A stretch of 44,979 bases of DNA from Bacteroidetes bacterium 4572_128 (lineage in GTDB: Bacteria; Bacteroidota; Bacteroidia; Bacteroidales; 4572-128): positions 1-44,979 of the forward strand of contig NBLL01000013.1 of assembly GCA_002084355.1 (NCBI GenBank). Reading direction: 5' to 3'. Below are positions 316 to 44,979 of the stretch, piece by piece. The translations under genes and the position numbers were made by a program. Positions within the stretch are counted from its first letter, which is position 1. Each line of letters opens with the position of its first letter. The notes beneath the pieces were generated by a model. It saw only the letters and a list, made by a program, of their open reading frames with translations, ran no database searches and was not told where the DNA came from.

Positions 316-368
316 AAAAATTGGGTGTTTTTTGAAAAAATATTTTTTTCAAAAAACACCCAATTTTT
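316..368. terminator. Perfect 25-bp inverted repeat, 3-nt loop
   Basis: aaaaattgggtgttttttgaaaaaa (316-340) / tat / ttttttcaaaaaacacccaattttt (344-368), about 20 bp after the stop at 297. Confidence 0.75.
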
Positions 369-1152
369 ATGAGAAATTTAATAATGTTTTAATTTTTTTC
401 ATTCCTAATTCTTCATTCAAATTAAAAATTTCTCATTTTATTTCGTTATCTTGGAAATTTATTTCATTTTCTAATTTTAATTTTATTAAAAAATTGACGT
501 TTTTTGGAAAAAATTTTTTTTAATAAAATTAAAAGCAAGATAAAAAATATTAAAATTTTGGACGAATTTTAAAAAATTTTTCAGCAGATACAAACCTAAT
601 TTTTAGGTTTTTTATAATTTTTCCAATAAAATTTTTTTTTTTAAAGTTTCTTTATTTTTGAAAAAATAAATTTTATGGAAATAAAAAATAAATTTAAAAT
701 TAATTTAAAATTAAATGAAATCAACATTTTACAAAAAAAAAAAAGAAAATATGGTGATTTGAAATTATTTTTTCCTACTGAAAAATTTAATAAATTAATG
801 AAAAAAAAATAAAAACAAACATTTATTGCATTAATTGAAAATGAATTATTATTTTAATAAAAAAAAATATTTAAATATTTATTATGCTATTTGGGTAGAT
901 AAATAAAAAAATATCGTAATGAAGAAAGAATAATGTGAATGTGAATAAATAATGAAAAAATTTTTAAATTATTCATTAAAAATTCCTCATTAAAAATTAT
1001 TGGATTATTTTCATTTGAAAAAAAATTATTCGCAATTATTTTTGTAAAATAATAAAAAAACGATGAAATTTTAATGATTTTTTATTAAAAAAAATGACGA
1101 TTTTTTTATAATTTATAAAAAATTACTTTTGAAAAATTTTTATTTTTAAATT

Positions 1153-1956
1153 ATGAATGCATATATTTTTCCTGGTCAAGGTTCTCAGTTTGTAGGTATG
1201 GGAAAAGAACTTTATGAAAGTTCTTCTGTGGCAAAAGAAATGTTTGAAAAAGCAAATAAAATTCTTGGTTTTCGAATTACAGATTTAATGTTTAATGGAA
1301 CAAACGAAGATCTTAGGCAAACAAAAGTTACACAACCTGCCATTTTTTTACATTCTGTTATTTTAAAAAAAGTCCTGGAATCTAATTTTAAATTAGATAT
1401 GGTTGCTGGACATTCTTTGGGAGAATTTTCTGCTTTAGTTTCAAATGGTTCTTTATCTTTCGAAGATGGTTTAAAATTAGTTTACAAAAGAGCTATGGCA
1501 ATGCAAAAATCTTGTGAAAAAGAGATTTCTACTATGGCAGCAGTTATTGGAATGGAAGATAAAAAAGTGGAAGAAATTTGTAATTCTATAGATGAAATTG
1601 TTGTTCCTGCAAATTATAATACAAAAGGGCAAATTGTTATTTCTGGTTCTGAGAAAGGAATTGATTTGGCAATAAAAAAATTAAAAGCATCCGGAGGAAG
1701 AAAAGCAATAAATGAAACTTGTTTTAAATTTCCAATTTGTCCAATTTACCAAAATGTAAATGCAAAAGCGGTAAAAGACCCGGAAATTATAAAAGGAAAT
1801 TTAATTGCACAATTAACTTCTCCAGTGAAATGGACACAAACAATTCAAAATATGATAAAAGATGGTGCTTCTAATTTTACAGAAGTTGGTCCAGGAAAAA
1901 TTTTACAGTCTTTGATAAAAAAAATAAATAGGAAAATTCCAACAAGAAGTGCTTAG
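1153..1956 (+). CDS. fabD: Malonyl-CoA:ACP transacylase
   Basis: MNAYIFPGQGSQFVGMGKELYE, active-site VAGHSLGEFSALV, FTEVGPGKILQSLIKKI. Confidence 0.95.
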   Translation: MNAYIFPGQGSQFVGMGKELYESSSVAKEMFEKANKILGFRITDLMFNGTNEDLRQTKVTQPAIFLHSVILKKVLESNFKLDMVAGHSLGEFSALVSNGSLSFEDGLKLVYKRAMAMQKSCEKEISTMAAVIGMEDKKVEEICNSIDEIVVPANYNTKGQIVISGSEKGIDLAIKKLKASGGRKAINETCFKFPICPIYQNVNAKAVKDPEIIKGNLIAQLTSPVKWTQTIQNMIKDGASNFTEVGPGKILQSLIKKINRKIPTRSA

Positions 1957-1959
1957 AAA

Positions 1960-2721
1960 ATGAAATTTAAAATTATCGTTTCATCTTTTGCATTTTTCAT
2001 TTTATTTTTATATTTATCATTAATTATAAGTGCTTTTTTATATTTTGATATTGATAATTTTACATCAGATATTTTTTCAGAGCGAACATTTTTTTCTATA
2101 AAATTAAGTGTAATTACAGCAAGTATTTCTACTTTACTATCTATAATTATTTCTATACCAGCCGCTTATGCTTTATCAAGATATAATTTTTTCGGTAAAA
2201 ATTTAATAGATTTATTTTTAGAATTACCTTTAATTTTATCTCCTGCGGCACTCGGAGCAACTTTATTAATTTTTTTTAGTAATTCTGTTGGAATTTGGTT
2301 GCAGGAAAATATTACACAAATTATTTTTACTTTTTGGGCAGTTATTATTGCCCAATTTGTGAGTATACTTGGAATTTCTACTCGTATGGTAAAATCCATA
2401 ATGGACGAAATTCCAAAACGCTACGAAGACATCGCAAGAACATTAGGAGCAACTCCAATGCAAGCATTTTTTACAATATCTTTACCATTATCTAAAAAAG
2501 GTTTATTGTCTGTTTTTATAATGACTTGGGCAAAAGCTTTTGGCGAATTCGGAGCGACTTTCACAATAGCAGGAACAATGGCGATGAAAACAGAAACAAT
2601 ACCCGTTTCAATTTTTATGAAACTTTCAAACGCAGACGTAAACGGAAGCATCGCAATGATAATGGTTTTAGTTAGCACAGGAATAAGTTTGTTATTTATC
2701 ACCAAATTAATAAAATCTTAA
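1960..2721 (+). CDS. Molybdate/tungstate-type ABC transporter permease (ModB/WtpB-like)
   Basis: Multi-TM protein with permease loop DEIPKRYEDIARTLGATPMQAFFTISLPLSKKGLLS and WAKAFGEFGATFTIAGTMAMKTETIPVSIF. Starts 3 nt after fabD. Confidence 0.8.
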   Translation: MKFKIIVSSFAFFILFLYLSLIISAFLYFDIDNFTSDIFSERTFFSIKLSVITASISTLLSIIISIPAAYALSRYNFFGKNLIDLFLELPLILSPAALGATLLIFFSNSVGIWLQENITQIIFTFWAVIIAQFVSILGISTRMVKSIMDEIPKRYEDIARTLGATPMQAFFTISLPLSKKGLLSVFIMTWAKAFGEFGATFTIAGTMAMKTETIPVSIFMKLSNADVNGSIAMIMVLVSTGISLLFITKLIKS

Positions 2722-3370
2722 TCTTGTAATAAATTAAAAGTATGACAAGCAACTATTCCGGCAGTTTCTGTTCGCAATCTACTTTCTCCGAGACTTACAG
2801 ATTTAAAATTATTTTCCTCAGCCATTTTTATTTCTTTTTCAGAAAAATCGCCTTCTGCTCCAATTAAAATTAAAAATTTTTTTTCGTTTTTTTTGGCATT
2901 TTTTAATAAAATTTTTTTTTGATTTTTACAGTGAGAAATAAATTTTAAATTATTAGATTTTTTTAAAATAAAATCTTCAAATTTTATCATATTATTTAAT
3001 TTTGGCAAAAACAATTTTAAAGACTGTTTCATCGCAGAAATAATAATTTTCTCTGACCGCTCAAATTTAATATTTTTTCTTTCTGAATGTTCACATAAAA
3101 TTGGCGTAATTTCATTTATTCCGATTTCTGTTGCTTTTTCCAAAAACCATTCAAAACGAGAAATATTTTTTGTCGGAGCAATTGCAATGTGTAAAAAATT
3201 TGTTTTTTATTGTCGTCTATAATTTTTGCTTTGTATAATTTACCTTTTCCGTCGGTAAAATAAATTAAATTACCATTTTTTAAACGTAATACTTTAGAAA
3301 TATGTTTTGATTCTATTTTATCGAAAATATAAAATTTGTCATCAAAATTAGGAATATAAAATAATTTCAT
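2718..3370 (-). pseudogene. rsmE: 16S rRNA m3U1498 methyltransferase RsmE, broken by one frameshift
   Basis: 3116-3370 encodes the N-terminal part and 2718-3143 the C-terminal part (IGAEGDFSEKEIKMAEENNFKSVSLGESRLRTETAGIVA). Adding one A in AATAAAAAACAAATTTTTTACAC restores ...DNKKTNFLHIAIAPTKNISRFEWFLEKATEIG. Confidence 0.85.
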
Positions 3371-3459
3371 AAAATTAAATTTTTTTCAAAAATCGTAATT
3401 TTTAAATAATATTTTTTTTATTTAATATTTTTATTTAATATTGTAAAAATTTATAAATT

Positions 3460-4059
3460 ATGATTTATAACACAAGTAGAAAAAAACTTGCTCTTCCGGA
3501 GTATGGAAGAAATATCCAAAAATTAGTAAATTATGCTTTGTCAATTGAAGACGATATAAAACGTAATAGAGTTGCAAAAAATATTATTAAAATAATTGGA
3601 AATAAAAATCCACATCTAAGAGATATTGAAAATTTCAAACATAAATTATGGGAACATCTTGCAATTATGTCTGATTTTAAATTGAAAATAGACTATCCTT
3701 TTGAAATTCCAAAATTAGAAAATTTTCAAGAAAAACCAAATAAAATTCCTTATAAAGAAGAGAAAATTATTTTTCATCACTACGGGAAAATAATAGAATT
3801 TCTCATAGAGAAAGCAATAAGTTTAGAAAATATTGACGAAAAAAGAAAAGAAGAACTTACAGAGACCATTGCTAATCAAATGAAAAAATCTTATTTGATG
3901 TGGAATTCTGACGAAGTAAACGAAGAAACAATTTTGCAGAATTTGAATAGAATGTCAAGAGGAAGATTGAAATTAAAAAAAGATTTCAAATTTATAGATG
4001 CAAAAAATATAGTAAAAAAACATAAAAAAAAGAGACAATCAAACAGAAGATATAAATAA
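3460..4059 (+). CDS. DUF4290-family protein
   Basis: MIYNTSRKKLALPEYGRNIQKLVNYAL...IIGNKNPHLRDIENFKHKLWEHLAIMSDF...MKKSYLMWNSDEV, a characteristic Bacteroidetes family. Confidence 0.85.
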   Translation: MIYNTSRKKLALPEYGRNIQKLVNYALSIEDDIKRNRVAKNIIKIIGNKNPHLRDIENFKHKLWEHLAIMSDFKLKIDYPFEIPKLENFQEKPNKIPYKEEKIIFHHYGKIIEFLIEKAISLENIDEKRKEELTETIANQMKKSYLMWNSDEVNEETILQNLNRMSRGRLKLKKDFKFIDAKNIVKKHKKKRQSNRRYK

Positions 4060-4207
4060 AATTTAAAAAAAAATTTTTTTAATAATCGTCTAAAATTTTC
4101 TCATAAAATTGCTTAAAATTTTAATATTTTCAATATTAAAAAAAATGTTTTTTTTTATAAAAAAAAATTAAATTTGTATTTTAAAAATTTAAATTTAAAA
4201 ATAAATT

Positions 4208-4924
4208 ATGGATAAAAATAGTAATCTTTATACTTTTATTTATGCTTCTATTCTTGTTATTTTAGTTGCTTTGGTTTTGTCTTTTACAGCGATAACTTTA
4301 TCTCCTATGCAACAGAGAAATATAGAAGTTGAGAAAAAACAAAATATACTTACTTCAGTTTCTATTGAAAGCAGTTTTGAAAACGCAGAGGAGCTTTTTT
4401 CTAATTATATAAAAGAAAGTTTTCTTGTTGATGTCAAAGGGAATAAAAAATCAGGAGACGCTTTTTTAACAGATTTAAAAAAAGAGATGTCAAAAGATTT
4501 AGAAGATAGAAATTTTCCAGTTTATATCGCCGAAAAAGATAATAAAAAAAATATTATTATTCCTCTTTTAGGTAAAGGTTTATGGGGTCCACTTTGGGGC
4601 TATATTTCTTTGGAAAAAGATTGTAATACAATTTTTGGGGCAGTTTTTGACCATAAAGCAGAAACTCCTGGTCTTGGAGCAGATATAAATAAAGAATGGT
4701 TTGAAAAACCTTTTACAGGAAAGAAACTTTTTGATAAAAAAGGAAATTTTATTTCTATAACTGTTTATAAGGGTGGAAAAGGAGCAGCAAAAATAGCTGG
4801 CGATTTAGAACATGGAGTAGATGCTATTTCCGGTGGAACTATAACTAGTAAAGGTCTTGAAGATATGGTAAAAGACTGTATGAAAAATTATGAAGAATTT
4901 TTAAAAAAAAGTAAAATTAATTAA
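4208..4924 (+). CDS. nqrC: Na+-translocating NADH:quinone reductase subunit C
   Basis: Single N-terminal TM segment, GLWGPLWGYISL, ETPGLGADI and the flavinylation motif SGGTITS. Confidence 0.93.
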   Translation: MDKNSNLYTFIYASILVILVALVLSFTAITLSPMQQRNIEVEKKQNILTSVSIESSFENAEELFSNYIKESFLVDVKGNKKSGDAFLTDLKKEMSKDLEDRNFPVYIAEKDNKKNIIIPLLGKGLWGPLWGYISLEKDCNTIFGAVFDHKAETPGLGADINKEWFEKPFTGKKLFDKKGNFISITVYKGGKGAAKIAGDLEHGVDAISGGTITSKGLEDMVKDCMKNYEEFLKKSKIN

Positions 4925-4927
4925 CCA

Positions 4928-5548
4928 ATGGATCCAAAGAATAAAAAATTATTAACAAATCCAATAAATATTGATAATCCAATAACGATACAAGTTTTAG
5001 GGATTTGTTCGGCATTGGCAGTAACGGTAAAATTAGAGCCGGCTGTTGTAATGTCTATTTCTGTTTTGTTTGTACTTGCTTTTGCAAATGTAATTATTTC
5101 TTTGCTGAGGAATACTATTCCTTCACGAATTAGAATTATTGTTCAGCTAGTAATAATAGCATTTCTTGTTATACTTGTCGATCAAGTTTTAAAAGCATTT
5201 CTTTATGATGTTAGTAAACAGCTTTCTGTTTTCGTTGGTTTAATAATTACTAATTGTATTATTATGGGACGTTTAGAAGCTTTTGCTCTTGCCAACAAAC
5301 CTTTTCCTGCTTTTCTCGATGGACTCGGAAATTCGGCAGGTTATGGAATAATTTTAATTATTGTTGCGTTTTTTAGAGAATTACTTGGTTCTGGCACTGT
5401 TTGGGAAATTCAAGTAATTCCAAATTTTGTTTATGAAATGGGCTATCAAAATAATGGTCTAATGATACTTCCGCCTATGGCTTTGATAGTTGTAGGAATA
5501 ATTATTTGGATACAAAGAGCGAAAACTCCTGAATTAATAGAAAATTAA
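4928..5548 (+). CDS. nqrD: Na+-translocating NADH:quinone reductase subunit D
   Basis: NPITIQVLGICSALAVTVKLEPAVVMS, TNCIIMGRLEAFALANKPFPAFLDGLGNSAGYG. Confidence 0.95.
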   Translation: MDPKNKKLLTNPINIDNPITIQVLGICSALAVTVKLEPAVVMSISVLFVLAFANVIISLLRNTIPSRIRIIVQLVIIAFLVILVDQVLKAFLYDVSKQLSVFVGLIITNCIIMGRLEAFALANKPFPAFLDGLGNSAGYGIILIIVAFFRELLGSGTVWEIQVIPNFVYEMGYQNNGLMILPPMALIVVGIIIWIQRAKTPELIEN

Positions 5549-5553
5549 TTTTT

Positions 5554-5588
5554 AATGAGGAATGATAGAGTTTTTTTCATTCCTCATT
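5554..5588. terminator. Hairpin between convergent nqrD and ribH
   Basis: aatgaggaatga (5554-5565) and tcattcctcatt (5577-5588) are complementary; the loop is T-rich. Confidence 0.6.
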
Positions 5589-5596
5589 TCTCATTT

Positions 5597-6082
5597 CTAA
5601 TTCCTCATTAATTTGAAGTTTATCATTTTTATTGCTGTTATAGCTGCTTCTTCTCCTTTGTTTCCTAATTTTCCACCAGCTCTGTCTAATGCTTGTTGTT
5701 TTGTGTCCGTAGTTAAAACACCAAAAATAACTGGCATACGACCAATAAGATTTAAAGAAGTAATACCATGAGTAACTCCAGAACACACAAAATCAAAATG
5801 AGATGTTTCTCCTTTAATAACTACACCAAGAACAATTATAGCATCGAAACCTTCAGAAGAAAGATATTTTGCACCGTAAGTTAATTCGAAAGCACCTGGA
5901 ACGTCTTTTTTTACGATTTTTTCGTTTTCAACACCAAGTTTCAAAAGTGTTTCTGAAGCACCTTGATATAATTTTTTTGTAATATCAGAATTCCATTCTG
6001 AAACAACTATACCAATTCTCACACGTTTAATATCAAAATATAAATCTAAAGAATCAGAATTAGGCAAATTTACTGTTGTCAT
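5597..6082 (-). CDS. ribH: 6,7-dimethyl-8-ribityllumazine synthase
   Basis: [87 protein letters not shown]. Confidence 0.96.
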
Positions 6083-6173
6083 AATTTTTTTATTTTTTTT
6101 ATTTAAAAACGCAAAATTATTATTATAAATTAATAAAAAAAATCAAAAATTAAATTATTTTATGAAATTTAAA

Positions 6174-6614
6174 TTAAAAAAAATTTTTTCAAAAAAACCG
6201 CAAATTTTTAACGTTTTTATAATTAAAAAAAAATTTTTTTTTCAAAAAACCGCAAATTTTTAACGTTTTTATAATTAAAAAAATTTTTTTTTCAAAAAAA
6301 CCGCAAATTTTTAACGTTTTTATAATTAAAAAAATTTTTTTTCAAAAAAACCGCAAATTTTTAACGTTTTTATAATTAAAAAAAATTTTTTTTTCAAAAA
6401 AACCGCAAACTTTTAATGTTTTTATAATTAAAAAAAAAATTTTTTTCAAAAAACCGCAAATTTTTAACGTTTTTATAATTAAAAAAAATTTTTTTTTCAA
6501 AAAAACCGCAAATTTTTAACGTTTTTATAATTAAAAAAAATTTTATAATTTAAAAAAAATTTTTTCTTCAAAAAACCGCAAATTTTTAATGTTTTTATAA
6601 TTTAAAAAAAAACT
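6174..6614 (-). repeat. Tandem repeat array A, 8 units of about 51 bp
   Basis: CCGCAAA[T/C]TTTTAA[C/T]G starts at 6198, 6250, 6301, 6351, 6403, 6454, 6506 and 6576. The minus strand reads GCGGTTTTTTGAAAAAAA..TTTTTT. Confidence 0.95.
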
Positions 6615-6663
6615 TTATTTGAAAAAAAAATTTTTACTAAATTTTGTACTTTTAACATTTTTT

Positions 6664-8256
6664 TTAAAAAATATAAGTTTTTAAACCAATCATAAAAGAA
6701 TTTGAAATATTTTTTTCTATATATTTTTGCACCATAAAAATATAAGAAATTTCAAAATACAAATTCCAATTTGGATTTATCAAATAAGATAAACGATTTT
6801 CATTATAAAAAATATAATTTTTTTCACCTTGTGTAGTTTTATTTCCATAATCATTTAAAGCACTTAAATAAGATAAATAAATATTTTGACCATAATTTTC
6901 ATTATTTTTATTCATTCCTTGCACAGAAATAATTGATAGATTTTTTATGAAAAATCTATTTTTTCTATAAAAAATATTTAAAATTCCCTCTCTAAAATTT
7001 GCTCCTAAAGGATGTGCAAGAGCTTGATAATAAGAACCATAATTATTTAAAATAGAACTATGCGAATAAGTAAAAGGACGAACATAATTATATTCGCTTT
7101 GTATTTTTAAATTTTTTATGGATAAAAAGTCAAAAATTTTTATTCCAATTTGAAAACCAAATTTATTATGTTTCCAGCCGTTTCGATTTTTTATTTCTGA
7201 CAAAAGAAACTCGTCTAAAATTGTTTGTCCATATAAATAATAATTTTTAATAATTTCAAATTTAAAACCTGCTCCAAGAATAACATTGTCCGGCGAACCA
7301 ACTGAATTTTCCAATGGACGATAAAAAATAATTGGATTTAAATAATTCACTTCAAAATCTCTGTTTTTTATACTATCTTTTTCAGCCCAAATTATCGCTT
7401 CAAAAATATTAATATTAAATTTTTTATTCAAATTAAAACTTAAAAAATGTAAATTAATATACTTTTTTGAAAAATTATTTTTCATCTCTACGAAATCGAA
7501 ATCTTGCAAAAACCCCATTAAATTTATATAATGAAATTTCCCAATTTTTGTAGAAATTTTGTAAAATGGAAAAGAGTTTGAATTTCTCGATAAAAATAGC
7601 GAACGAAAACCATCACCAAAAAAATGTTTATCTTTTCCGAGATGAAAAGAAAAATATTTATTTAATGAATAAACAAATAAAAAATCGCTTTTTAAAAAGC
7701 GATAAAAACTTTCATTTTGATAAATACTTTTTCCAAAATTTTTTACAATTTTTGTACTATCTAATAATTCATAGTTTTGAAAATTTTTTAAAGAATATGC
7801 GAAATTCCAGTAAAAAAAAAATTTTTTATTATAATTCATTTTTGCAGAAAAACCCGCAGAAAATTCATAAGGATTTTTAAAACTATTAAAATTTTCCGAA
7901 AGTCCCATGCTTAAATATGGTGCTTCTTCTATAAATTTTGGTTTTAAACTTCCAAAAAGTTCTATAATAGGAAACAAAGAAAATTTATAATTCCCCTTTT
8001 TTTTTATGAAAAAATTAGAATTTAAAAAAAAATTTTTTTGGAAAAATGGCATTTTTTTTTGAAAATTTTGAAAATTTTTATTTTCTGATATAAAAAAAGA
8101 TTTTATTGAAGTGTGAAATTCTTTCTCATCATAAAAAAATTTTTCATAAATTTCTATCAAATTTTTATTTTTTGACAAAAAATCTTGCGAAAAAACCTTA
8201 TTCGTAAAAAGAAAAATAATTAATAAATAAAAAAAAAATTTTATATAAAATGCCAT
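6664..8256 (-). CDS. Outer-membrane protein, possibly RemB/Wzi-like
   Basis: Signal peptide, beta-barrel-like alternation, and motif HLGKDKHFFGDGFRSLFLSRNSNSFPFYKISTKIGKFHYINL, which resembles Bacteroidetes RemB/capsule-assembly barrel proteins. Confidence 0.5.
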   Translation of the reverse strand: MAFYIKFFFYLLIIFLFTNKVFSQDFLSKNKNLIEIYEKFFYDEKEFHTSIKSFFISENKNFQNFQKKMPFFQKNFFLNSNFFIKKKGNYKFSLFPIIELFGSLKPKFIEEAPYLSMGLSENFNSFKNPYEFSAGFSAKMNYNKKFFFYWNFAYSLKNFQNYELLDSTKIVKNFGKSIYQNESFYRFLKSDFLFVYSLNKYFSFHLGKDKHFFGDGFRSLFLSRNSNSFPFYKISTKIGKFHYINLMGFLQDFDFVEMKNNFSKKYINLHFLSFNLNKKFNINIFEAIIWAEKDSIKNRDFEVNYLNPIIFYRPLENSVGSPDNVILGAGFKFEIIKNYYLYGQTILDEFLLSEIKNRNGWKHNKFGFQIGIKIFDFLSIKNLKIQSEYNYVRPFTYSHSSILNNYGSYYQALAHPLGANFREGILNIFYRKNRFFIKNLSIISVQGMNKNNENYGQNIYLSYLSALNDYGNKTTQGEKNYIFYNENRLSYLINPNWNLYFEISYIFMVQKYIEKNISNSFMIGLKTYIF

Positions 8257-8261
8257 TTTTT

Positions 8262-9155: not shown

Positions 9156-9297
9156 AATTTAATTTCTATAAAAAAATTAAAAATGATAATTTATTTTAAA
9201 TTCAAAATAAAAATATATTTTTTTTACAATAAAAAATTTTTAAATAAAAATTTTTATTAAAAATATTTTAATAAGTTTGCAAAAAATATAAAAAAAA

Positions 9298-11683: not shown

Positions 11684-11703
11684 AATATTTTTTTTATTTA
11701 TAA

Positions 11704-12979: not shown

Positions 12980-13625
12980 AAAAAAATGGCGTTTTTTAGA
13001 AAAAATTTATTTGAAATAAAAGTTAAAAAAAATGGCGTTTTTTGGAAAAAATTTTTTTATGATAAAAAATCCGTAAAATATTGGCGTTTTTTAGAAAAAA
13101 TTTTTTTAATAAAAATTAAAAAAAAATGGCGTTTTTTGGAAAAATTTTTTTGAAATAAAAGTTAAAAAAAAATGGCGTTTTTTGGAAAAAATTTTTTTGA
13201 AATAAAATTTAAAAAAAATGGCGTTTTTTGGAAAAAATTTTTTTTGAAATAAAAGTTAAAAAAAAATGGCGTTTTTTGGAAAAAAAATTTTTTTTGAAAT
13301 AAAAATTAAAAAAAATGGCGTTTTTTGGAAAAAATTTTTTTTGAATAAAAATTAAAAAAAAAGGCGTTTTTTGGAAAAAATTTTTTTTGAATAAAAATTA
13401 AAAAAAAATGGCGTTTTTTGGAAAAAATTTTTTTTGAATAAAAATTAAAAAAAAATGGCGTTTTTTGGAAAAAATTTATTTTAAATAAAAATTAAAAATT
13501 TTGGCGTTTTTTGGAAAAAATTTTTTTTGAATAAAAGTTAAAAAAAATGGCGTTTTTTGGAAAAATTTTTTTTAATAATTTGAAATAAAAATTAAAAATT
13601 TTGACGTTTTTTGAAAAAAATTTTT
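12980..13625 (+). repeat. Tandem repeat array B, about 14 units of 46-49 bp
   Basis: GGCGTTTTTT(A/G)GAAAAAA starts at 12988, 13034, 13083, 13128, 13174, 13220, 13268, 13317, 13363, 13410, 13457, 13503, 13549, and a GACG variant at 13603. Confidence 0.97.
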
Positions 13626-15985: not shown

Positions 15986-16843
15986 ATGAAAATTTTTTTA
16001 AAAAAAAAGTTATTAAAAACTATGAAAATACAATATATAAGTTTTTTACTAATTTTTTTTATTGCGTGTCAAGATGTAAAAGAAGAAACTGATGATTTTG
16101 ATGATTCAGGTTTTATAGCAGTTGAAACAAAAAAGCATCTTCGGGTAGTTGAGAAAATTTTTGCAAATATGCCTTCTCATAAAGAAATGTTATCTTTTGT
16201 AAAAGGTACAGGTGAAATTTATAATGATACGATTTTGAATAATACAAAAAACATTTCTAATTATTTTTCTAATTATAAAAAAGCTGTTAATTTAGGAACT
16301 TACGGTGCTGATATTTCTTATTCACGTATGTATGACCAGCTTCAGGTGAGTATGAATTATTTAATAGTTATACAAAAATTAACTAAAGAAATTGGAATAC
16401 CTGAAAAAATAACTGCTTCGGCAATAGAACGTTTGCAAAATAATTTGAATGATCAAGATTCTGTTTTAATAATTGTTAAAGAAACTTATAGAACAACAGA
16501 TAAATTCTTAAAAGAAAATGAAAGAGGAAGCACTGCGTCTTTAATAATTTTTGGCGGATGGATGGAAACTTTTTATATTGCGATAAGATTATTTGACGAA
16601 AAAAATCCAAATTCTGTTATTTTAGAAAAAATAATTAACCAAAAACAATCTTTATATAATTTATATGAATTACTTTTATTTTATAAAGAAGAACCTGAAG
16701 TTGAGAAATATTTAAAAGATCTAAAAATTTTAATGAAAAAATTTGGCTCTATAAGTAATGATGAAAAATTAGAAGAAAAGATTAAAAAAGTTTCTGATAT
16801 TAAAAAATTAATTTCAGAAATAAGAACAAAAATTGTAAAATAG
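15986..16843 (+). CDS. Predicted lipoprotein, uncharacterised paralogous family (copy 1)
   Basis: Lipobox-like FFIAC after an internal Met (MKIQYISFLLIFFIACQD); conserved KKAVNLGTYGADISYSRMYDQLQVSMNYLIVIQKLTKEIGI. The real start may be the internal ATG at 16022. Confidence 0.8.
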   Translation: MKIFLKKKLLKTMKIQYISFLLIFFIACQDVKEETDDFDDSGFIAVETKKHLRVVEKIFANMPSHKEMLSFVKGTGEIYNDTILNNTKNISNYFSNYKKAVNLGTYGADISYSRMYDQLQVSMNYLIVIQKLTKEIGIPEKITASAIERLQNNLNDQDSVLIIVKETYRTTDKFLKENERGSTASLIIFGGWMETFYIAIRLFDEKNPNSVILEKIINQKQSLYNLYELLLFYKEEPEVEKYLKDLKILMKKFGSISNDEKLEEKIKKVSDIKKLISEIRTKIVK

Positions 16844-20201: not shown

Positions 20202-20224
20202 ATTTTTTTTTAATAAAAAACCAT

Positions 20225-20515
20225 AAAATTTTGGCGTTTTTTTGAAAAAAATTTTTTTAAAATTTAAAAATCATTAAAATTTTGGACGAATTTTGAAAAA
20301 AATTTTTTATTTTAAAATAAAATCATTAAAATTTTGGCGTTTTTTTGAAAAAAAAATTTTTTTTTAATTTAAAAATCATTAAAATTTTGGCGTTTTTTTG
20401 AAAAAAAAATTTTTTTTTAATTTAAAAATCATTAAAATTTTGGCGTTTTTTGAAAAAAATTTTTTTTAAAAATCATTAAAATTTTGGCGTTTTTTGAAAA
20501 AAAATTTTTTTATTA
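20225..20515 (+). repeat. Tandem repeat array C, 6 units of 44-53 bp
   Basis: AAAATTTTGGCGTTTTTT units with GG at 20233, 20284 (GGACGAATTTT variant), 20336, 20389, 20442 and 20486. Confidence 0.95.
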
Positions 20516-26489: not shown

Positions 26490-26780
26490 GCAATTTTTTT
26501 TTTTTTAAAAATTTTTTTTCAAAAAAACGTCAATTTTTTTATGATTTGATTTTATTAAAAAAAAATTTTTTTTTCAAAAAAACGTCAATTTTTTATGATT
26601 TTATTTTAAAATTTTCCCCAAAAACAGCAATTTTTTTATGATTTGATTTTATTAAAAAAAAATTTTTTTTCAAAAAAGCGTCAATTTTTTATGATTTTAT
26701 TTTAAAATTTTCCCAAAAACAGCAATTTTTTTATGATTTGATTTTATCAAAAAAAAAAAAATATTTTATAATTTAATTTT
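26490..26780 (-). repeat. Repeat array D with alternating subunits
   Basis: CGTCAATTTTTTATGATT.. units near 26528, 26583 and 26679 alternate with CAGCAATTTTTTTATGATTTGATTTTAT at about 26625 and 26721. Confidence 0.85.
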
Positions 26781-31284: not shown

Positions 31285-31474
31285 ATAAATAAAAAATTCA
31301 TTTTTTTGAAAAAACGTCGAAATTTTGAAATTCTATTAAAATCAAAATAAGAAAATTTCAAAACTGGAAGAACTATATGGAATATAATTCTATTATAAAA
31401 AAAATGAAATAAAAAAAATTTTTTCAAAAAAATGCCAATTTTTTTAATTTTTTTTTATTGAAATGAAAAAAATT

Positions 31475-31531
31475 TTTCAACAGATACAAACCCAAAAAAT
31501 TAATGTTTTTTTGGGTTTGTATCTGTTGAAA
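31475..31531. terminator. Perfect 25-bp inverted repeat between convergent genes
   Basis: tttcaacagatacaaacccaaaaaa (31475-31499) / ttaatgt / ttttttgggtttgtatctgttgaaa (31507-31531). Confidence 0.8.
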
Positions 31532-34323: not shown

Positions 34324-34419
34324 AATTTTTTATAATTTAAAATTTTCATAATTTAAAATTTAATTTAAAAATGTTAAAAATTTTGCTGAATTTTTGAAAA
34401 AAAATTTAAAAATTAAAAT

Positions 34420-35130: not shown

Positions 35131-35142
35131 ATTTTTTATTTT

Positions 35143-35376: not shown

Positions 35377-35908
35377 AAAATTTTAATTTTATTAATGCAA
35401 ATATAGAATAATTTATTATATCATAATAATTTGCATCTACTCCTTCAGAAATAATTGTTTTACCATCATGATTTTCTATTTGTTTAGTGCGATGTATTTT
35501 CATCAAAATAAAATCTGTATAAGATGTTAAACGCATTTTTCTCCATGCTTCGTTGTAATCGTGATTTTTTTTACACATTAAATTTTTCGCATATTCAAGA
35601 TATTTATCATAAAGTTCTAAAACTTTTTTTTGCGATAAATTCAAATTTTCTGAAAAACCCAATTCCATCTGAATTAAAGCGATGGTAGAATAATTTACCA
35701 TTGCAACATATTCATCAAAAATACTCTCATTTATTTTTTGAACTTTTTTTATTTCAAAACTTCTAATTCTTTCTGCTTTGATAAAAAGTTGGTCTGTTAA
35801 AGAAGTTGGACGTAAAACTCGCCAAGAAGTACCATAATCATGAGATTTTTTTTCAAAAATATCTCTACAAATTTTAATAATATTTTCAAACTCTTTTGTT
35901 GATTTCAT
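35366..35908 (-). CDS. DUF1599-domain protein
   Basis: Two internal repeats: CRDIFEKKSHDYGTSWRVLRPTSLTDQLFIKAERIRSFE and AKNLMCKKNHDYNEAWRKMRLTSYTDFILMKIHRTKQIE. Confidence 0.88.
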   Translation of the reverse strand: MKSTKEFENIIKICRDIFEKKSHDYGTSWRVLRPTSLTDQLFIKAERIRSFEIKKVQKINESIFDEYVAMVNYSTIALIQMELGFSENLNLSQKKVLELYDKYLEYAKNLMCKKNHDYNEAWRKMRLTSYTDFILMKIHRTKQIENHDGKTIISEGVDANYYDIINYSIFALIKLKFYEN

Positions 35909-35954
35909 AATATTTTATTAAAAAAATTCAAATTTAAATTTTTTTAATAAAATA

Positions 35955-36135
35955 TTAAAATTTTGGTGTTTTTTAGAAAAAATTTTTTTTTAATAAAATA
36001 TTAAAATTTTGGCGTTTTTTAGAAAAAAATTTTTATTCTTGAAATTAAAAAATATTAAAATTTTGGACGAATTTGAAAAAAATTTTTTTTATTTTAAAAA
36101 GATTAAAATTTTGGCTTAAAAAAAAAAAATTTTTT
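35955..36135 (+). repeat. Repeat array E, 4 units of about 46-54 bp
   Basis: AAAATTTTGG(T/C)G.. with GG at 35965, 36011, 36065 (GGACGAATTT variant) and 36113 (GGCTTAAA). Confidence 0.9.
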
Positions 36136-36159
36136 TGAAAAAATGAGAATTTTTAATTA

Positions 36160-39100
36160 TTATTTTATTTCAATATTTCTTTTTTTATTTATAATTGCAA
36201 TTTCAAGATCTTCGTTATTTTTTTCTTCTATATTTGGTTTTTCACCTATCCAAAACCAATTTATAAAAAATTTTGTTTTATATAAATAAAATTTTAAACG
36301 AATTAAAACTAAAATTAAAGGTGGAAAGATTAATAAAATAAGTGCTGTACCAATAAAAACGCCATAAGCAAGTGATGCAGCCATAGGTTTTAAAAATTGT
36401 GCTTGAAAGCTTTTTTCAAAAATTAAAGGATATAAACCTACGCTGGTGGTTATGGTTGTCAATATAATTGCTCTAAACCTAGAAATTCCAGCATTATAAG
36501 CTGCTTCTTCAACTTTATTCCCTTCTAAGATTAAAGAATTATATTTTGCAAGAAATACAACCGCATCATTTATAATTACTCCGGAAAGTGCAACCATTCC
36601 CCAAGCACTTAACATAGAAATTGGTATTCCTTCTAAACCGTGTCCCCAAATTGCTCCTATCCACGCAAGCGGTATCATTAAAAGAATTATAAAAGATTGC
36701 GAAACAGATTTAAAATGTAACATTAACAACAAAAGAATTACCGCAAAAGCAATGGAAAAATTATTCTTCATATCTTCTATAGATTCACCGCCACTTTTAC
36801 TTTGTCCTTGATATAAAACACTCACTCCTTTATATTTTAATTTCATAGGTTTAATTATATCATTTTTAATTTGTTCCATAATTGCAGGAATTGGAGAATA
36901 AGGGTCTAATAAATCAGCATCTATACGAATTTCTCGGGAAGAATTAAAACGACGAATATTTACAGGACCTCTTTCCAAATGATAATCTACTAAATCTTTT
37001 AAAAAAAATATCCCTTTTTGTGTCTTAATTTTCATATTTTCCAATTGACCAACATTTAATCTATCTTCTTTTGGATACCTTACCCAAACTCTTAATTCGT
37101 CTTTTCCATTTTGTAAACGCTGAACCTGTCCACCAAAAAATCCTTGTCTAATTTGATTACTTATGCTTGCATGATCTAAACCTAAAAAATATGCTTTATC
37201 TTTTAACTTTATACGAATTTCTTGTTTACCTGCGGCATCATTATCAACTATATCTTTTAGAGTTGGAATTTCTAATAAACCATCTTTTAAAAACTTTTTT
37301 GCATGAGTTAATTCATTTAAATTTTTACTTAAAATAGAAATAGAAACAGGTTTTCCAAATCTATTTTCTGCACCAATTTTGAACTTTTCTGCTTCTTTAA
37401 CAAAAGGTATTCTTTCTTGTATTCTTCGAGAAATTTCAAAACTTGAAATTGGAGCACCTTCTAAATCACCAAGCATAATTTGAATATGTCCAGCATGTGA
37501 ACTGTAATTCGTCATTCACCTGCCATACAATTTTATCAAATTTTTGTAAATATTTAAAAGTTTGTTTTTCACCATCACTTGGTTTAAAAGCAATATCAAT
37601 TTTAAACATATCAAAAGGAATGGCAGGAAAAATAGTATATTTAATAAAACCGCCTTGTATTAAACCTATGGTTAAAAAAAGAAAAAACACTGGCATAGTT
37701 ACAGCTATCCATTTCCATTTTATAATAATTTTTAATATCCTACCATAAATTTTATTTTTCATAAAATTTATAAATTTCTCAAGTATTTTTCTAATTTTAC
37801 TTTTTCTTGATTTTCTTCTCAAAATATGTGGACTTGCAAGGTGTGCAGGCAAAACAAAAAATGCTTCTATCAAAGAAAAAAATAAACTTACAATAACAAC
37901 AAAAGCCATTTCTCTTAGAAATTCCATGCGTCCGGAAAGAAATAAAATTGGAGTAAAAGCAATTATAGTCGTACTTACTGAAGTTGTAACAGCAGGTAAA
38001 ACTTCCATCGTTCCGTCAATTGCTGCTTGTTTTGGTGTTTTTCCTTTTTCATAATGAGTAAAAATATTTTCACCAATAACTATTCCATCATCAACAAGTA
38101 TTCCAATAACCAGTATCATTCCAAATAAAGAAATCATATTTATTGTAATACCATATAAATTTGCAACTATAAACATCGCCAAAAATGCGGAAGGAATTCC
38201 CCATGCAACCCAAAGCGATAATCGGAAACTTAAAAATAATGCCAGAGTAACTATCACAAGAATTAAACCTAATCCGCCGTTAGATAATAACATATCTAAA
38301 CGACTATTTAACATACCTAAAAAATCAAATGTTACTATCAATTCAATACCTTTGTGAATTTTATTAAATTTTTCTACATAAGCATTACAAAATACAGATA
38401 TTTCTTCTAAGTCTTCATTATTTAATTTATTGATCATTATATAAACAGCATTTTTTCCGTTCATTAAACTCAAAGATGAAACATCAGCAAATTTATTTTT
38501 TACTGTTGCAATGTCTCTAATTCTTATAAAAGAACCGTCATTATTTGCTCTTAAAATTATTTCTCCTATATTTGCTGGTTTTACACTTCTAGAACGAGAA
38601 CGTATTAAAATTTCTTCTTCGTCGGATTTTATCATACCTGCAGAAATATCTCTATTATTTTGAGAAATGGCACGAGAAATCTCATCGAAACTTATATTAT
38701 ATCTTAATAAATCTTCTTCTGTCACTTCAACAGAAATCTCTAAATTAGGAAAACCTTGCAAACTTATCTGAGACATAATTCCAGAAGCATAAAAATCATC
38801 TTCTATTTCTTGAGCATATTTTTTTAAAGTTGATAAATCTACATCGCCAGAAAGTCCAAGATAAATTGCTTGTGTAAAAGAACGACTTTTGGAAACTATA
38901 GGTCTTTCTGCATCTATTGGCATTGCACTAATTCCATCTACTGCATTTTTCACTTCCATTAAAGTTTCGTCCAAATCAAATTGTCCGGTTGTTTCTATTG
39001 AAACTCTTGCGAAATTTTCAAAAGAATTAGATGTAATTTCTTTTATTCCAACTATTCCACGCAAAGCTTCTTCTATTCTTGTTGTAATACCTTCTTCCAT

Positions 39101-39277
39101 TTCTTTTGGAGAAGCTCCAGGATATGAAACTGAAACATTTATAAATTTTGAAGTTCTTTCGGGGAAAAAAGATTTTTTAGTTTTTAATATACTAAAACCT
39201 CCGGCAAATATCAAAATGGCAATTATTATATTTGCATAAAAAGGGTATTTTACAAATGTTGTTATTAAGCTTTTCAT
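36160..39277 (-). pseudogene. RND efflux transporter permease, split by one frameshift
   Basis: 37466-39277 N-terminal half (SVSYPGASPKEMEEGITTRIEEALRGIVGIKEITS, GILVDDGIVIGENIF) and 36160-37515 C-terminal half (PLAWIGAIWGHGLEGIPISMLSAWGMVALSGVIINDAVVFLAKYN). The frame changes at about 37490-37510. Confidence 0.9.
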
Positions 39278-39368
39278 AAATTTAAAAAAATGGATTTTTT
39301 AAAAAAAATTTTTACAAAATTAAAAAAAAAATGACATTCTTATAAAAAATTTTTTTCAAAAAAAAATT

Positions 39369-40351
39369 ATGTGTAAAATATTAGTAGGACATCTTGGAAT
39401 AATGCATGCTGACTTTAAAAATTTTATTTCTTCTTATAAAAAATATAAAATCGATTTTGAAATTTTTAACATTTTAAAAGACGATTTAAGAAAAATTAAA
39501 TTATCTAGTAATGAAATAATTGATTTGAGAAATTGTAGAGGATATCACGAGATTCATTCATTTCAAAAACATTTAACAAATTTAGAAATAAATTTTAAAA
39601 ACATTCCTACAATTCCATCAATGAAAATGATAAAATGGAGCATTGATAAATCTAAATATTTGGAAGATTTAAAAAATATTAAAAAAATTCCAAGTAAAAT
39701 CTTAAAAAAAAATGATATTTCTGTAGAAAATATTTTGAATTTTATTGATAAAAATACCTCACTTGGAATAGTTTTAAAACCATTAATTGGTTCACGAGCT
39801 TATCAAATTATCAGGATAAGGAAAAAAAATCAAAAATACGATATTTATATTCCACATAGAAGAATTGAAAAAAAAGAAAGCTGGACAGAAGAAAAAACTT
39901 TAAATAGGAATAATTTGAAATTTTTATTGAAAATTACATAAAAAAAAATTATTCTGGAATTATTTTGCAAGATTATATAATATCAAATGAATATTGTGCA
40001 ATTTATTTAAATAATAAATTATCTCATATTGTTGAAAAAAAAGGAATGTATGAAGATAATATTGATAATTTCAATATTCATCATAAAAATTTTGGCGGAA
40101 AAAATATACTACATTCTACATTAGATAATAAAATCATCAAATTTGCAAAAGACGTTTTTAATAAAATTCCAAAATGGATAAAAGAAGATCCATTTATTAT
40201 TTATGAAAGAATTGATATTTTATCAAATAAATTAAATATGAACCTTTATTTGTTGGAAATAGAAGCATTTGTTCCGGATATTTTTCTTAGAGAAAGTGGA
40301 AATATTAACAAATATTGTAAGTTGATAAAAAAATTATTTAAAAAAATTTGA
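39369..40351 (+). pseudogene. ATP-grasp (RimK/glutathione-synthetase-like) ligase, frameshifted
   Basis: IPSMKMIKWSIDKSKYLEDL..LGIVLKPLIGSRAYQIIRI.. then, in the adjacent frame, NYIKKNYSGIILQDYIISNEYCAIYLNNKLSHIVEKK..LYLLEIEAFVPDIFLRES. One extra A in TTGAAAATTACATA joins them. Confidence 0.65.
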
Positions 40352-40571
40352 AATATATTAAACAAATTTTAATGAATTTTATAATTAAAAAAAAATTTTT
40401 TTTTCAAAAAAACGATAAATTTTTATATTTTAAAGTGAAATTTTTTTTAATAAATGACGAATTTTTTTTTAATTTTAATTGTATAAATATTTTTTCATAA
40501 AAAAATTTGTAATTTTCATAAAAAAAAATTTTTTTTTATGAAAAAATTATATATTTTTATTAAAAAAAATT

Positions 40572-42788
40572 ATGAAAAAATATATAATTTATTTCTTTTT
40601 TTCTTTTATTTCAATAAATTTATTTTCGCAAAAAGATTCTTTAGATTTTTATCTAAATATGTCTTTGGAGGAATTAATGCAAATTGAAATTATTACAGCA
40701 TCAAAAAATTTACAAAAAGCAACTGATGCGCCAGCAACAGTTTATGTTGTAACAGAAGAACAGATAAATGAACGTTGTTATTCTTGTTTGGGTGATTTAT
40801 TAGAGGATATTCCACAAGTAGAAATACAGAGAAAAGTACATTCTGAAACTTTCGATATATTTACTTTTAATGGAATTACAGGAAACGAAAAATTTCTAAT
40901 TTTGATGGATGGAATTAGAATTAATTCGGCAACAGGAACACCGCACACAATAGGAGAAAGTTACTCACTTACAAATGTGAAACAAGTTGAAATAATATTG
41001 GGTCCTGCGTCGTCTTTGTATGGAGCAGACGCTTTTACAGGAATTGTAAATATTATTACAAAAAAATCTTATGAAAATAAAGGTTTTCATTTGAACGCTT
41101 CTTATGGAATGTTCAATACCAGTAATACTTCATTAACTTTTGCTACAGGAGATGAAAATATTTCTTTTTCAATAACAGGAAAATATTATCATTCTGACGA
41201 AGCATTTTATCCAAAATATTATAAAAAAGAATATGATTGGTACATAAATCATTATAAACCTCATGGTGATATTATAATTTTTGGAGACACTGTTAATGTT
41301 CCGATTAAAGATTGGGAAATTCCTACAAATTCTTATTTTATTCATTCTAAATTAAATATTAAAAATTTTGAAATAGGATATTCGAGAAATTATGAATCAC
41401 ATTCTACCTCAAAATCTTCTAACCCAGAAACAGCTATACTTTCTGAAGATGTGATTTATAATACTCATGTAGAATCTATTTATGCTCTTTATGATTTTTA
41501 TTCTGACAATGAAAAATTTAATTTAAAATCTATAATTTCTGCACAAGAATTTAAAATACATCCAGAATCAAAATTTCTTAATCAATACACAGCTATTAAA
41601 GATGGTTTTAAATATGAAAAAAATAATTATTTAAGAATTGAAGAACAGTTAAGTTATAATTTTTCTAAAGATATTTTTTTACTCGGAGGAATTTCTTACG
41701 AAAATATTAATGCACTTCCAAAAACGAGTGATTTACCTTTTCAATTCGATGAAAATCAAGCAACTAATTTGCAAAATATTTATTACCCAGGGACTAATAT
41801 TTTAGATAAAGACAGTAATGATTTAACTATTTATCAAGATTTTTATTCTATAAATTATAAAAATTACGGATCATATTTACAATTACAAAGTAATTTTGAA
41901 AATTTGAAAATTACTTTAGGTGCTAGATATGATTACAATACAAGATATGGAAAAACTATAAATCCAAGAATTGGTTTTGTTAAACATTTTTCTGAAAGAT
42001 TAACTGTAAAATTACTTTTTGGTAAGGCTTATCTTGCTCCTTCACCTCATAAATCGCATCAACATTATGGTGCTTTATCTGAAATAAAAGATAGTATTAC
42101 AAATGAAATTATTGGTTTAAAAGCTACATTTTTACATCTACCAAATCCTAATTTAAAACCAGAAAAAAGAACTTCTTATGAAGCATCTTTTTTATATAAA
42201 ATAAATAAAGAACTTGCTTTGTCTTCTAATTTATATTATGGAATAATAAAAAATTTAATAGAACCAGAAGGTTTTTTTGGTGAAACTTTTCATAATGTTC
42301 CAGTTGGTTATGTAGAAAGGGCTGTAAATAAAGGCGAAGCAGAAACTTACGGTGGAACTTTTAGAATAGATTATAGAAAAAATTTTTCAAAATTATTAAT
42401 TAATTTCTTTTCTTCCTACACTTATTCTGACGGAGAAATATTATCTGATAATGAAAACGAACCTTTAAAATTTAATGCTAAAAATACTGTTAAAACTGGT
42501 CTTGGAATTAATTTTAAAAAGATAGTTCTTTTTACAAAATTATTATACAGAACAAAAAGTCATCATAGAAATTCTACCTATAAAAATCCAATTACAAATG
42601 ATGAATTTATATATTTAAATTTATCTATAAAATATAATCTTTTAAAAAAAGATAATATAAATATTGCATTTTTTACGAAATTTACAAATTTATTAAATTC
42701 TAAAATTTATCATGTTGGAGATTCTGATTTTAATAAAATTCCGCAAGAACCTTTAAAAATTAGTTTTGGTTTTAATTTAGATTTTTAA
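40572..42788 (+). CDS. TonB-dependent outer-membrane receptor
   Basis: EIITASKNLQKATDAPATVYVVTEEQINER plug, VKQVEIILGPASSLYGADAFTGIVNIITKKS, NPNLKPEKRTSYEASF, terminal aromatic. Confidence 0.93.
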   Translation: MKKYIIYFFFSFISINLFSQKDSLDFYLNMSLEELMQIEIITASKNLQKATDAPATVYVVTEEQINERCYSCLGDLLEDIPQVEIQRKVHSETFDIFTFNGITGNEKFLILMDGIRINSATGTPHTIGESYSLTNVKQVEIILGPASSLYGADAFTGIVNIITKKSYENKGFHLNASYGMFNTSNTSLTFATGDENISFSITGKYYHSDEAFYPKYYKKEYDWYINHYKPHGDIIIFGDTVNVPIKDWEIPTNSYFIHSKLNIKNFEIGYSRNYESHSTSKSSNPETAILSEDVIYNTHVESIYALYDFYSDNEKFNLKSIISAQEFKIHPESKFLNQYTAIKDGFKYEKNNYLRIEEQLSYNFSKDIFLLGGISYENINALPKTSDLPFQFDENQATNLQNIYYPGTNILDKDSNDLTIYQDFYSINYKNYGSYLQLQSNFENLKITLGARYDYNTRYGKTINPRIGFVKHFSERLTVKLLFGKAYLAPSPHKSHQHYGALSEIKDSITNEIIGLKATFLHLPNPNLKPEKRTSYEASFLYKINKELALSSNLYYGIIKNLIEPEGFFGETFHNVPVGYVERAVNKGEAETYGGTFRIDYRKNFSKLLINFFSSYTYSDGEILSDNENEPLKFNAKNTVKTGLGINFKKIVLFTKLLYRTKSHHRNSTYKNPITNDEFIYLNLSIKYNLLKKDNINIAFFTKFTNLLNSKIYHVGDSDFNKIPQEPLKISFGFNLDF

Positions 42789-42822
42789 ATCTAAATTAAG
42801 ATATAATTTTTAAAAACATACA

Positions 42823-42851
42823 ATTTTGTTAGAAAAATTTTCTAACAAAAT
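42823..42851. terminator. Perfect 13-bp hairpin 3' of the TonB receptor
   Basis: attttgttagaaa (42823-42835) / tttctaacaaaat (42839-42851). Confidence 0.65.
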
Positions 42852-42931
42852 GTTCTATGATAAAATTTTTTAATTTTGAAAAAAAATATAATTTTCAAAT
42901 AAAAATTTGAATTTATAAAAAATAATTTTTT

Positions 42932-44836
42932 ATGAAATTTTTTTATTTATTTTTAATAATACTATTAATATCATTTAACAAAAAAAATGATGATGAAAAA
43001 CCTTGTATAAAAATTACTAATAAAAAAGCAATTTCTTTTTATGAAAAAGCTATGGATAATTTAAAATTTTTCGAAAAAAATGCCTATAATTTATTTGAAA
43101 AAGCAATAGAAATCGAGCCAAAATATGCAAAAGCATATTATGAACTTGCAAACATAAACTATAAAAAAGCATTAAAATTTATTAATAATAAAAATAAAAT
43201 AGATAAATATGAAATGTATTCTAATAATGCTTTTGTTTATTTTGGAAAAGTTGCTGAATATTGTCCTTCTTTATATAATTATTCGGCTTTTTTTTTTATA
43301 GGAAAACATCTTTATGAAAAAAGACAATTTGAAAAATCTGATATTAAACTGAGTTTTTTTATAGAAAATTTCGAAATTGAAAAAAGAGGAGTTGAAAATT
43401 ATCGAAATGCAAATAAAATGCTTAATAATATTAAAGAATATAATTATCTAATAAATAATCCTGTTCCATTTAACCCAAGACTTTTATCTTTTTGTACTGA
43501 CGAAGATGAATTTTTACCACTTATTACACCTGATGGAGAATATTTTTTTTATACACATAGGTATGAAAAAGAAATTATAAAAAAAAAAAAAAAACTAGTT
43601 ATAACTATGGACAATAAACATATTTTTTTAACCGTTTGTGACTCTGAAAGAGACAAACATACATCTTATAAAAATTGTGATATTTATACTTCTGACCATA
43701 TAAATGGTAAATGGTCTTCATTAAAAAAATTAAGTTCTAATATTAATTCTCCACACACATGGGAAGGACAAGCAAGTATTTCTGCAGACGGTAAAACTTT
43801 ATATTTTGCTAGTGCAAGAGAAGGAGGTTTTGGAAAATTAGATATTTATTATTCTAAAAAAAATAAAAATGGTGAATGGTCTAAGGCAGTAAATCTCGGC
43901 GAAACAATCAATACAGAAGGAAATGATAAAACACCATTTATTCACAGTGATAATAAAACTCTTTATTTTTCTTCTGACGGTCGTTTTGGTTTGGGTTCTT
44001 TTGATATATTTTTTTCGAGGTTTGAAAATGGAAAATGGAATAAACCTAAGAATATTGGTTATCCGATAAATACCGAAAATGATGAAGTTGGTTTTGTGGT
44101 TAGTAGAGATGGTAAAAATATTTATTTTTCTTCTAATACATTATCGGAAAATCACGAAAAAGAAGACTGGGAAATATATTCTTCTGAATTACATGATAAA
44201 GTCAAACCACAAGAAGTTTTATTTATAAAAGGACAAATTTTTGATGACAATGGAAATGCGCTCACCGGAGCAAAAGTAGAATTATTAAATACAAAAAATA
44301 AAGAGAAAAGCTTTGCGATGGTAGATGAAGAAGGAAATTATGTTCTTGTGGTTGGAACAAATAGAGAAGGTAAATTTATTATGACAGTTCAAAAAAAAGA
44401 TTATTTTTTTAATACAGAAGAATTTGATATGAATAATTTAGAAAAAGGGAAAGTTGTAAAATCAAATATAAAAATGAAAAAAATAAAAATTGGTGAAAGT
44501 ATGAAATTAGAAAGTGTGCATTTTGAAACAAATTCTTATGAACTTGATGAAATTAGTATGGAATATTTAAAAAATTTATTATTATTTTTAAATGAAAATC
44601 CAAAATTAAATATAGAAATCAGCGGACATACAGATAATATTGGAATAGATGCAAATAATTTAATTCTTTCAAAACATAGAGCAAAAGCGGTTTTTTATTT
44701 TCTTATTGAAAATGCTATAGATAAAAATAGATTATCATATAAAGGTTTTGGTAAAAATAAACCAATAACAACAAATGATACTTCAATAGGAAGAGCATTA
44801 AACAGACGTACAGAATTTAAAATTACAAAAATGTAA
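42932..44836 (+). CDS. TPR + beta-propeller (WD40-like/PD40) + carboxypeptidase-regulatory-like + OmpA protein (PorE-like architecture)
   Basis: TPR-like N-terminus; GQASISADGKTLYFASAREGGFGKLDIYYSKKNKNGEWS repeats; IKGQIFDDNGNALTGAKVELL; C-terminal EISGHTDNIGIDANNLILSKHRAKAVFYFL..GRALNRRTEFKI. Confidence 0.88.
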   Translation: MKFFYLFLIILLISFNKKNDDEKPCIKITNKKAISFYEKAMDNLKFFEKNAYNLFEKAIEIEPKYAKAYYELANINYKKALKFINNKNKIDKYEMYSNNAFVYFGKVAEYCPSLYNYSAFFFIGKHLYEKRQFEKSDIKLSFFIENFEIEKRGVENYRNANKMLNNIKEYNYLINNPVPFNPRLLSFCTDEDEFLPLITPDGEYFFYTHRYEKEIIKKKKKLVITMDNKHIFLTVCDSERDKHTSYKNCDIYTSDHINGKWSSLKKLSSNINSPHTWEGQASISADGKTLYFASAREGGFGKLDIYYSKKNKNGEWSKAVNLGETINTEGNDKTPFIHSDNKTLYFSSDGRFGLGSFDIFFSRFENGKWNKPKNIGYPINTENDEVGFVVSRDGKNIYFSSNTLSENHEKEDWEIYSSELHDKVKPQEVLFIKGQIFDDNGNALTGAKVELLNTKNKEKSFAMVDEEGNYVLVVGTNREGKFIMTVQKKDYFFNTEEFDMNNLEKGKVVKSNIKMKKIKIGESMKLESVHFETNSYELDEISMEYLKNLLLFLNENPKLNIEISGHTDNIGIDANNLILSKHRAKAVFYFLIENAIDKNRLSYKGFGKNKPITTNDTSIGRALNRRTEFKITKM

Positions 44837-44979
44837 TTTTTATTAAAAAAATTTTAGCGTTTTTTTGAAAAAAAAAGTAACCGCTCATTATAGTATGGTA
44901 AAAAAAGTTTTTTCGCAAAAAATAAAAACCATAAAGCTTTGATTTTAAGGTTGTTACGTTTTTTGTAAAATGCAAAAAA

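What the first reader, a model, noticed from the sequence alone, without database searches (positions are those of the whole stretch)
316..44870. Dispersed, tandemly amplified intergenic repeat family with core GGCG-T6-G-A6-T7
The same core (about GGCGTTTTTTGGAAAAAATTTTTTT) recurs throughout the window, only between recognised genes. It appears as arrays A (6174-6614), B (12980-13625), C (20225-20515), D (26490-26780) and E (35955-36135). Single copies occur near 498, 31300, 31430, 40405 and 44855. The short GC core is the only GC island in nearly pure A/T sequence. Arrays lie in divergent and codirectional gaps and in both orientations relative to neighbouring genes, so simple terminator or promoter function does not explain them. 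Each array has its own spacer but shares the core. This suggests dispersal followed by local tandem expansion, or concerted evolution around a selected core (protein site, curved DNA, or REP/BIME-like element).
Basis: partly seen in the sequence, partly recalled or inferred. Interest (0 to 1): 0.72.

Follow-up and report, generated by a model that had tools for sequence, protein, structure and literature searches.

The report
Satellite repeats at gene-order breakpoints
A very AT-rich uncultured Bacteroidales bacterium carries thousands of short tandem repeats between its genes, and nearly every gap that holds them has different gene neighbours in the sister species, so the repeats look like the joints along which its chromosome is being reshuffled.

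Summary
The repeat family is real. In the window the core pattern (up to 2 mismatches) occurs 24 times against 0 in 100 shuffles. In 581 kb of contigs taken by number, a profile finds 864 copies against 2 in reversed sequence, about 3,900 by extrapolation; clusters cover 8.8% of the DNA and 95% of copies are intergenic. Units of 43-58 bp run head to tail, uniform within an array and different between arrays; the GC core itself varies. Among held genomes the exact core is confined to this genus.

The main result goes beyond the finding. Against the only congener (median protein identity 94%), element-bearing gaps have lost gene adjacency in 59 of 65 cases, element-free gaps in 23 of 102. One breakpoint lies inside an array. 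Both genomes lack detectable XerC/D and FtsK-gamma but keep the FtsK motor; replication-strand skew is weak.

Best reading: intergenic minisatellites homogenised within arrays, acting as substrate for rearrangement. REP/BIME is rejected. Main caveat: both genomes are draft metagenome assemblies, so long reads are decisive.

The parts
312..369 (.). small cluster, two opposed element copies
   Evidence: profile 23.2 and 22.3 bits
484..580 (+). two copies: GACG core and GGACGAA variant
   Evidence: 30.4 and 12.3 bits
6175..6593 (-). array A, 8 copies, GCGG core, period about 52; the genes on its two sides lie on different contigs in G001 (one at a contig end)
12980..13629 (+). array B, 14 copies, GGCG core, period about 46; in G001 the right-hand gene has a different neighbour inside a contig
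20220..20511 (+). array C, 6 copies incl. one GGACGAA variant; adjacency broken in G001, both sides interior to contigs
26507..26737 (-). array D, 5 copies in an alternating 96-bp two-unit period; adjacency broken in G001
31292..31447 (-). two copies; adjacency broken in G001, both sides interior
34374..34406 (+). weak single copy; adjacency broken in G001
   Evidence: 14.4 bits
35952..36090 (+). array E, 3 copies incl. a GGACGAA variant, opposite to both flanking genes; the flanking genes are on different G001 contigs
40385..40417 (-). weak single copy
   Evidence: 16.8 bits
44847..44874 (+). weak single copy
   Evidence: 16.9 bits

Best explanation
A genus-specific family of dispersed intergenic minisatellites: a 43-58 bp A/T-rich unit with a short GC core and a T-tract, G(G), A-tract, T-tract. 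Units multiply locally and are homogenised within an array by unequal exchange or gene conversion. Arrays and single copies then serve as recombination joints between operon-sized blocks, so gene order is reshuffled at element-bearing gaps while the blocks stay intact. Shown: the arrays, their homogeneity, and the coincidence of breakpoints with elements. Inferred: that recombination between elements, probably by RecA and perhaps helped by T6-loop-A6-loop-T6 structures, causes the breaks, and that loss of XerC/D and of the FtsK gamma domain goes with tolerance of it.
For: Adjacency lost in 59/65 element-bearing vs 23/102 element-free junctions, odds ratio 34, p=3e-19; still 59/63 vs 9/23 when at least one of the two gaps is >=120 bp; same direction in convergent, divergent and codirectional gaps. 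Strict set with both genes mapped: element gaps 9 far, 1 near, 1 adjacent; element-free 3 far, 1 near, 70 adjacent. One array (G000:C50 / G001:C233) shares its first units between species, then switches to other units and another gene. One orthologous array is kept nearly unit for unit with a copy-number change, so arrays can be inherited. Left and right halves of arrays are nearly as similar (0.686) as units within a half (0.707), against 0.47 between arrays. A break also occurs at a 145-bp gap with one copy. Replication-strand skew is weak (ICC of GC3 0.105 and 0.021 vs 0.33 in a control genome). XerC/D and FtsK-gamma are undetected in both genomes, FtsK motor present. RecA is found in the congener. 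Other long repeats are few.
Against: Both genomes are draft metagenome assemblies; contig ends are enriched in elements and the congener has N gaps, so some junctions may be wrong. At broken junctions, left-right similarity beats the best other array in only 16 of 29 arrays. A break inside an array was seen in one clear case; elsewhere arrays beside the same gene are mostly no more alike than random, so rapid turnover, or array growth at old breakpoints, is possible. RecA was not found in G000 (73% complete). Some 'broken' element-free junctions are probably ORF-calling noise. Only two genomes could be compared.
Confidence: 0.58

Rival explanations
1. Passive satellites: elements grow in any intergenic gap that is not under selection, and rearrangements fix at the same unconstrained operon boundaries for other reasons; the two only coincide.
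For: 90% of convergent gaps hold elements but only 33% of divergent ones, as expected if promoters exclude them; arrays beside orthologous genes are mostly unrelated.
Against: The association holds within each orientation class and for gaps >=120 bp; one breakpoint lies inside an array.
Confidence: 0.25
2. Assembly artefact: reads were joined wrongly through arrays, so the scrambled gene order is false although the repeats are real.
For: Contig ends are enriched in elements; N runs in G001.
Against: Internal arrays are uniform end to end and differ from other arrays; breaks also occur at short gaps with one copy; skew is weak even within element-bounded segments.
Confidence: 0.12
3. Chromosome-organising sites: a nucleoid-associated protein binds the A/T-tract plus GC core, which is kept by selection.
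For: Architecture is conserved although core and spacer sequences vary; modest 10.5-bp periodicity.
Against: No constancy of orientation or phase: neighbouring arrays share strand in 104 of 193 cases and periods range over 43-58 bp; no candidate protein was identified.
Confidence: 0.1
4. REP/BIME-type elements spread by a RAYT transposase.
For: Dispersed, intergenic, repeated.
Against: No Y1 transposase in the genome with positive controls; fold z about 0; mostly single-orientation arrays.
Confidence: 0.02

Closest known systems
BrickBuilt minisatellite-MITE of Porphyromonas gingivalis (PMC4596501)
   Same: Same order Bacteroidales; tandem minisatellite, always intergenic, several loci
   Different: BrickBuilt has 23-nt units, 19 loci and a shared leader and tail with inverted ends; here there are no shared flanks, units of 43-58 bp, thousands of copies and array-specific spacers
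Mosaic, rearranged genomes of Achromatium oxaliferum (PMC5587575)
   Same: Conserved genes and operons with shuffled order, separated by less conserved spacers
   Different: There attributed to abundant transposases in a polyploid giant cell; here other long repeats are few, ploidy is unknown, and tandem repeats sit at the joints
Intrastrand triplex motifs linked to instability in E. coli (PMC4666352)
   Same: Intergenic motif associated with rearranged loci; 50.5% of units fit T6-loop-A6-loop-T6 (or its complement) vs 4.6% of shuffles
   Different: The characterised motif is G/C-rich and not tandem; triplex formation by the A/T unit is untested
Bacterial VNTR/minisatellites such as MIRU (from general knowledge)
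   Same: Head-to-tail units of tens of bp dispersed in intergenic DNA, copy-number change
   Different: Here a far larger share of the genome (8.8%) and tied to loss of synteny

Membership tests
Minisatellite / VNTR | head-to-tail units of about 10-100 bp | tested here: met
   92 of 113 arrays of >=3 copies all in one orientation, median periods mostly 43-58 bp
Minisatellite / VNTR | copy number varies at one locus | tested here: met
   one orthologous array, 8 vs 10 hits; a single case between species
REP/BIME | palindromic hairpin | tested here: not met
   mean z -0.22 and 0.26 on the two strands
REP/BIME | RAYT (Y1 transposase) in the genome | tested here: not met
   0 matches, controls positive in 5 of 14 genomes; genome 73% complete
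REP/BIME | pairs in inverted orientation | tested here: not met
MITE with minisatellite (BrickBuilt type) | shared leader and tail with inverted ends | tested here: not met
   no 10-mer (>=3 G/C) shared by more than 7 of 137 array flanks
CRISPR array | identical repeats separated by unique spacers | tested here: not met
   spacers are near-identical within an array
Intrastrand triplex motif (ITxF, PMC4666352) | three stems of at least 6 nt with loops of 1-6 nt | tested here: met
   T6-loop-A6-loop-T6 type in 50.5% of units vs 4.6% shuffled
Intrastrand triplex motif (ITxF, PMC4666352) | forms a triplex | not testable with these tools
   needs CD, NMR or footprinting
Intrinsic terminator | stable hairpin before a U-tract, oriented with the gene | tested here: not met
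   no orientation bias, no fold signal

The most novel reading that the evidence does not exclude
This genus has given up a fixed replichore layout: it lost XerC/D and the polarity-reading FtsK gamma domain, and uses or tolerates thousands of minisatellite joints at which operon blocks are continually re-joined, perhaps in a polyploid cell. Gene order would then be fluid at the scale of a few kilobases.
Probability: 0.25. Interest if true: 0.9.

Novelty: new variant of a known kind. Interest (0 to 1): 0.7.

Why it matters
Bacterial congeners at about 94% protein identity normally keep long collinear stretches (general knowledge). A lineage where order is lost at nearly every repeat-bearing gap, with the FtsK-gamma/Xer system missing, would allow a direct test of what holds bacterial chromosome architecture in place and whether tandem repeats can drive its collapse.

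Tried and rejected
REP/BIME and RAYT; site-specific recombination by a tyrosine recombinase (none in either genome); RNA function (Rfam none; fold z about 0); MITE ends; viral origin (0 matches in viral contigs); loss of mismatch repair as the cause (MutS1 present); a polar chromosome signal such as KOPS (neighbouring arrays share strand in 104 of 193 cases). The habitat of the congener MAG (JAOZVH01, isolate GMC9.metabat2.18) could not be traced.

Full report
What the sequence shows. The window is contig 107 of a 2.6-Mb, 73%-complete draft genome, 22.8% G+C, with Bacteroidota-type genes. The repeat unit reads roughly AAAATTTT-[GC core of 2-6]-TTTTTT-G(G)-AAAAAA-TTTTTTT followed by an A/T spacer. 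All five arrays are present and chance is excluded (reversed-sequence controls).

Genome-wide anatomy. In 581 kb of contigs taken by number (plus the window), 986 copies at >=12 bits form 212 clusters covering 8.8% of the DNA; 849 copies are in arrays of three or more; 92 of 113 such arrays are in one orientation; median periods are mostly 43-58 bp. Elements occur in 37 of 41 convergent, 71 of 184 codirectional and 19 of 58 divergent gaps of at least 60 bp, without orientation preference (39 vs 32). Array G+C is 12%, other intergenic 17%, coding 25%. The core varies between arrays, with one form dominating inside an array (mean 60%). Within-array similarity is 0.70, between arrays 0.47, with little decay with distance, the mark of array-wide homogenisation.

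Distribution. The exact core has 234 copies here, 130 in the only congener held, and none in 58 other genomes of the order, nearly all from different families. Viral contigs have none.

Gene order. Coding DNA matches the congener mostly at 88-98% and orthologous proteins at a median 94%, but the window maps to about ten separate congener contigs. Counting gene neighbours, 59 of 65 junctions with an element in either genome are broken, against 23 of 102 without. The effect survives a gap-length filter and holds in every orientation class. In the strict set with both genes mapped, element gaps give 9 far, 1 near and 1 adjacent, element-free gaps 3 far, 1 near and 70 adjacent. Some of the far cases include contig ends, but arrays C and D, the pair at 31.3 kb and a 145-bp one-copy gap are interior on both sides. 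In one case the first units beside a gene are shared by the two species, after which units and neighbouring gene differ (G000:C50 about 2.9-3.6 kb; G001:C233 about 20.3-20.7 kb); in another, shared units run into an N gap. One array is orthologous and kept almost unit for unit.

Is it an assembly artefact? Contig ends favour elements and the congener contains N runs, so caution is due. Against artefact: arrays are uniform from end to end, and of 29 arrays at broken junctions 22 have left-right similarity of at least 0.6, although only 16 beat the best other array. Third-position strand skew is weak here (ICC 0.105 and 0.021) relative to one control genome of the order (0.33), and lower than the control even within element-bounded segments, as expected if blocks have changed replication strand over time. 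Low G+C adds noise to the GC measure; the AT measure agrees.

Correlated gene losses. No tyrosine recombinase is detected in either genome, though 18 of 19 other genomes of the order have one (the exception is 61% complete). FtsK-gamma is undetected in both and present in 6 of 6 others, while the FtsK motor is present in both, in a 731-aa frame in the congener against 813-897 aa in controls. FtsK-gamma reads polar chromosome sequences and activates XerD (general knowledge). Loss of this system fits a chromosome without fixed polarity; cause and effect cannot be told apart. MutS1 is present.

Mechanism. Shown: tandem arrays, homogenisation, breakpoint association. Inferred: exchange between elements. 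T6-loop-A6-loop-T6 arrangements are found in 50.5% of units against 4.6% in shuffles; A/T-rich motifs of this class are catalogued in PMC4666352, where a G/C-rich class is tied to rearranged E. coli loci. Whether the A/T unit folds or breaks in cells is unknown.

Comparison. Closest in anatomy is BrickBuilt (PMC4596501), which differs by its shared ends and small copy number; closest in genome state is Achromatium (PMC5587575), there attributed to transposases. The family is best filed as intergenic minisatellites, an unusual variant by abundance and by its tie to lost synteny.

Noticed in passing
G000 and G001 whole genomes: No XerC/XerD or other PF00589 protein and no FtsK gamma domain detected, although the FtsK motor is present; nearly all other families of the order tested have both.
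   Followed up: partly
window about 575-620 and 31480-31530: A second inverted repeat, CAGATACAAACC...GGTTTGTATCTG, terminator-like, near element copies.
   Followed up: no
G000 intergenic DNA (sample): Another dispersed motif, AACATTGGAGGTTTTTT / AAAAAACCTCCAATGTT, in 28 places of the sample, apparently a repeated terminator hairpin.
   Followed up: no
L266 (G001:C152), gap between genes at 16215 and 16390: A stretch resembling a TPP riboswitch (GGGGGTGCTT...CTGAGATTATACCCTTTGAAC) before an outer-membrane-type gene, seen by eye.
   Followed up: no
L018 7279-8488 and L124 4027-4418: DNA beside this array is almost identical between the two species, well above the 94% median protein identity, suggesting recent exchange.
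   Followed up: no
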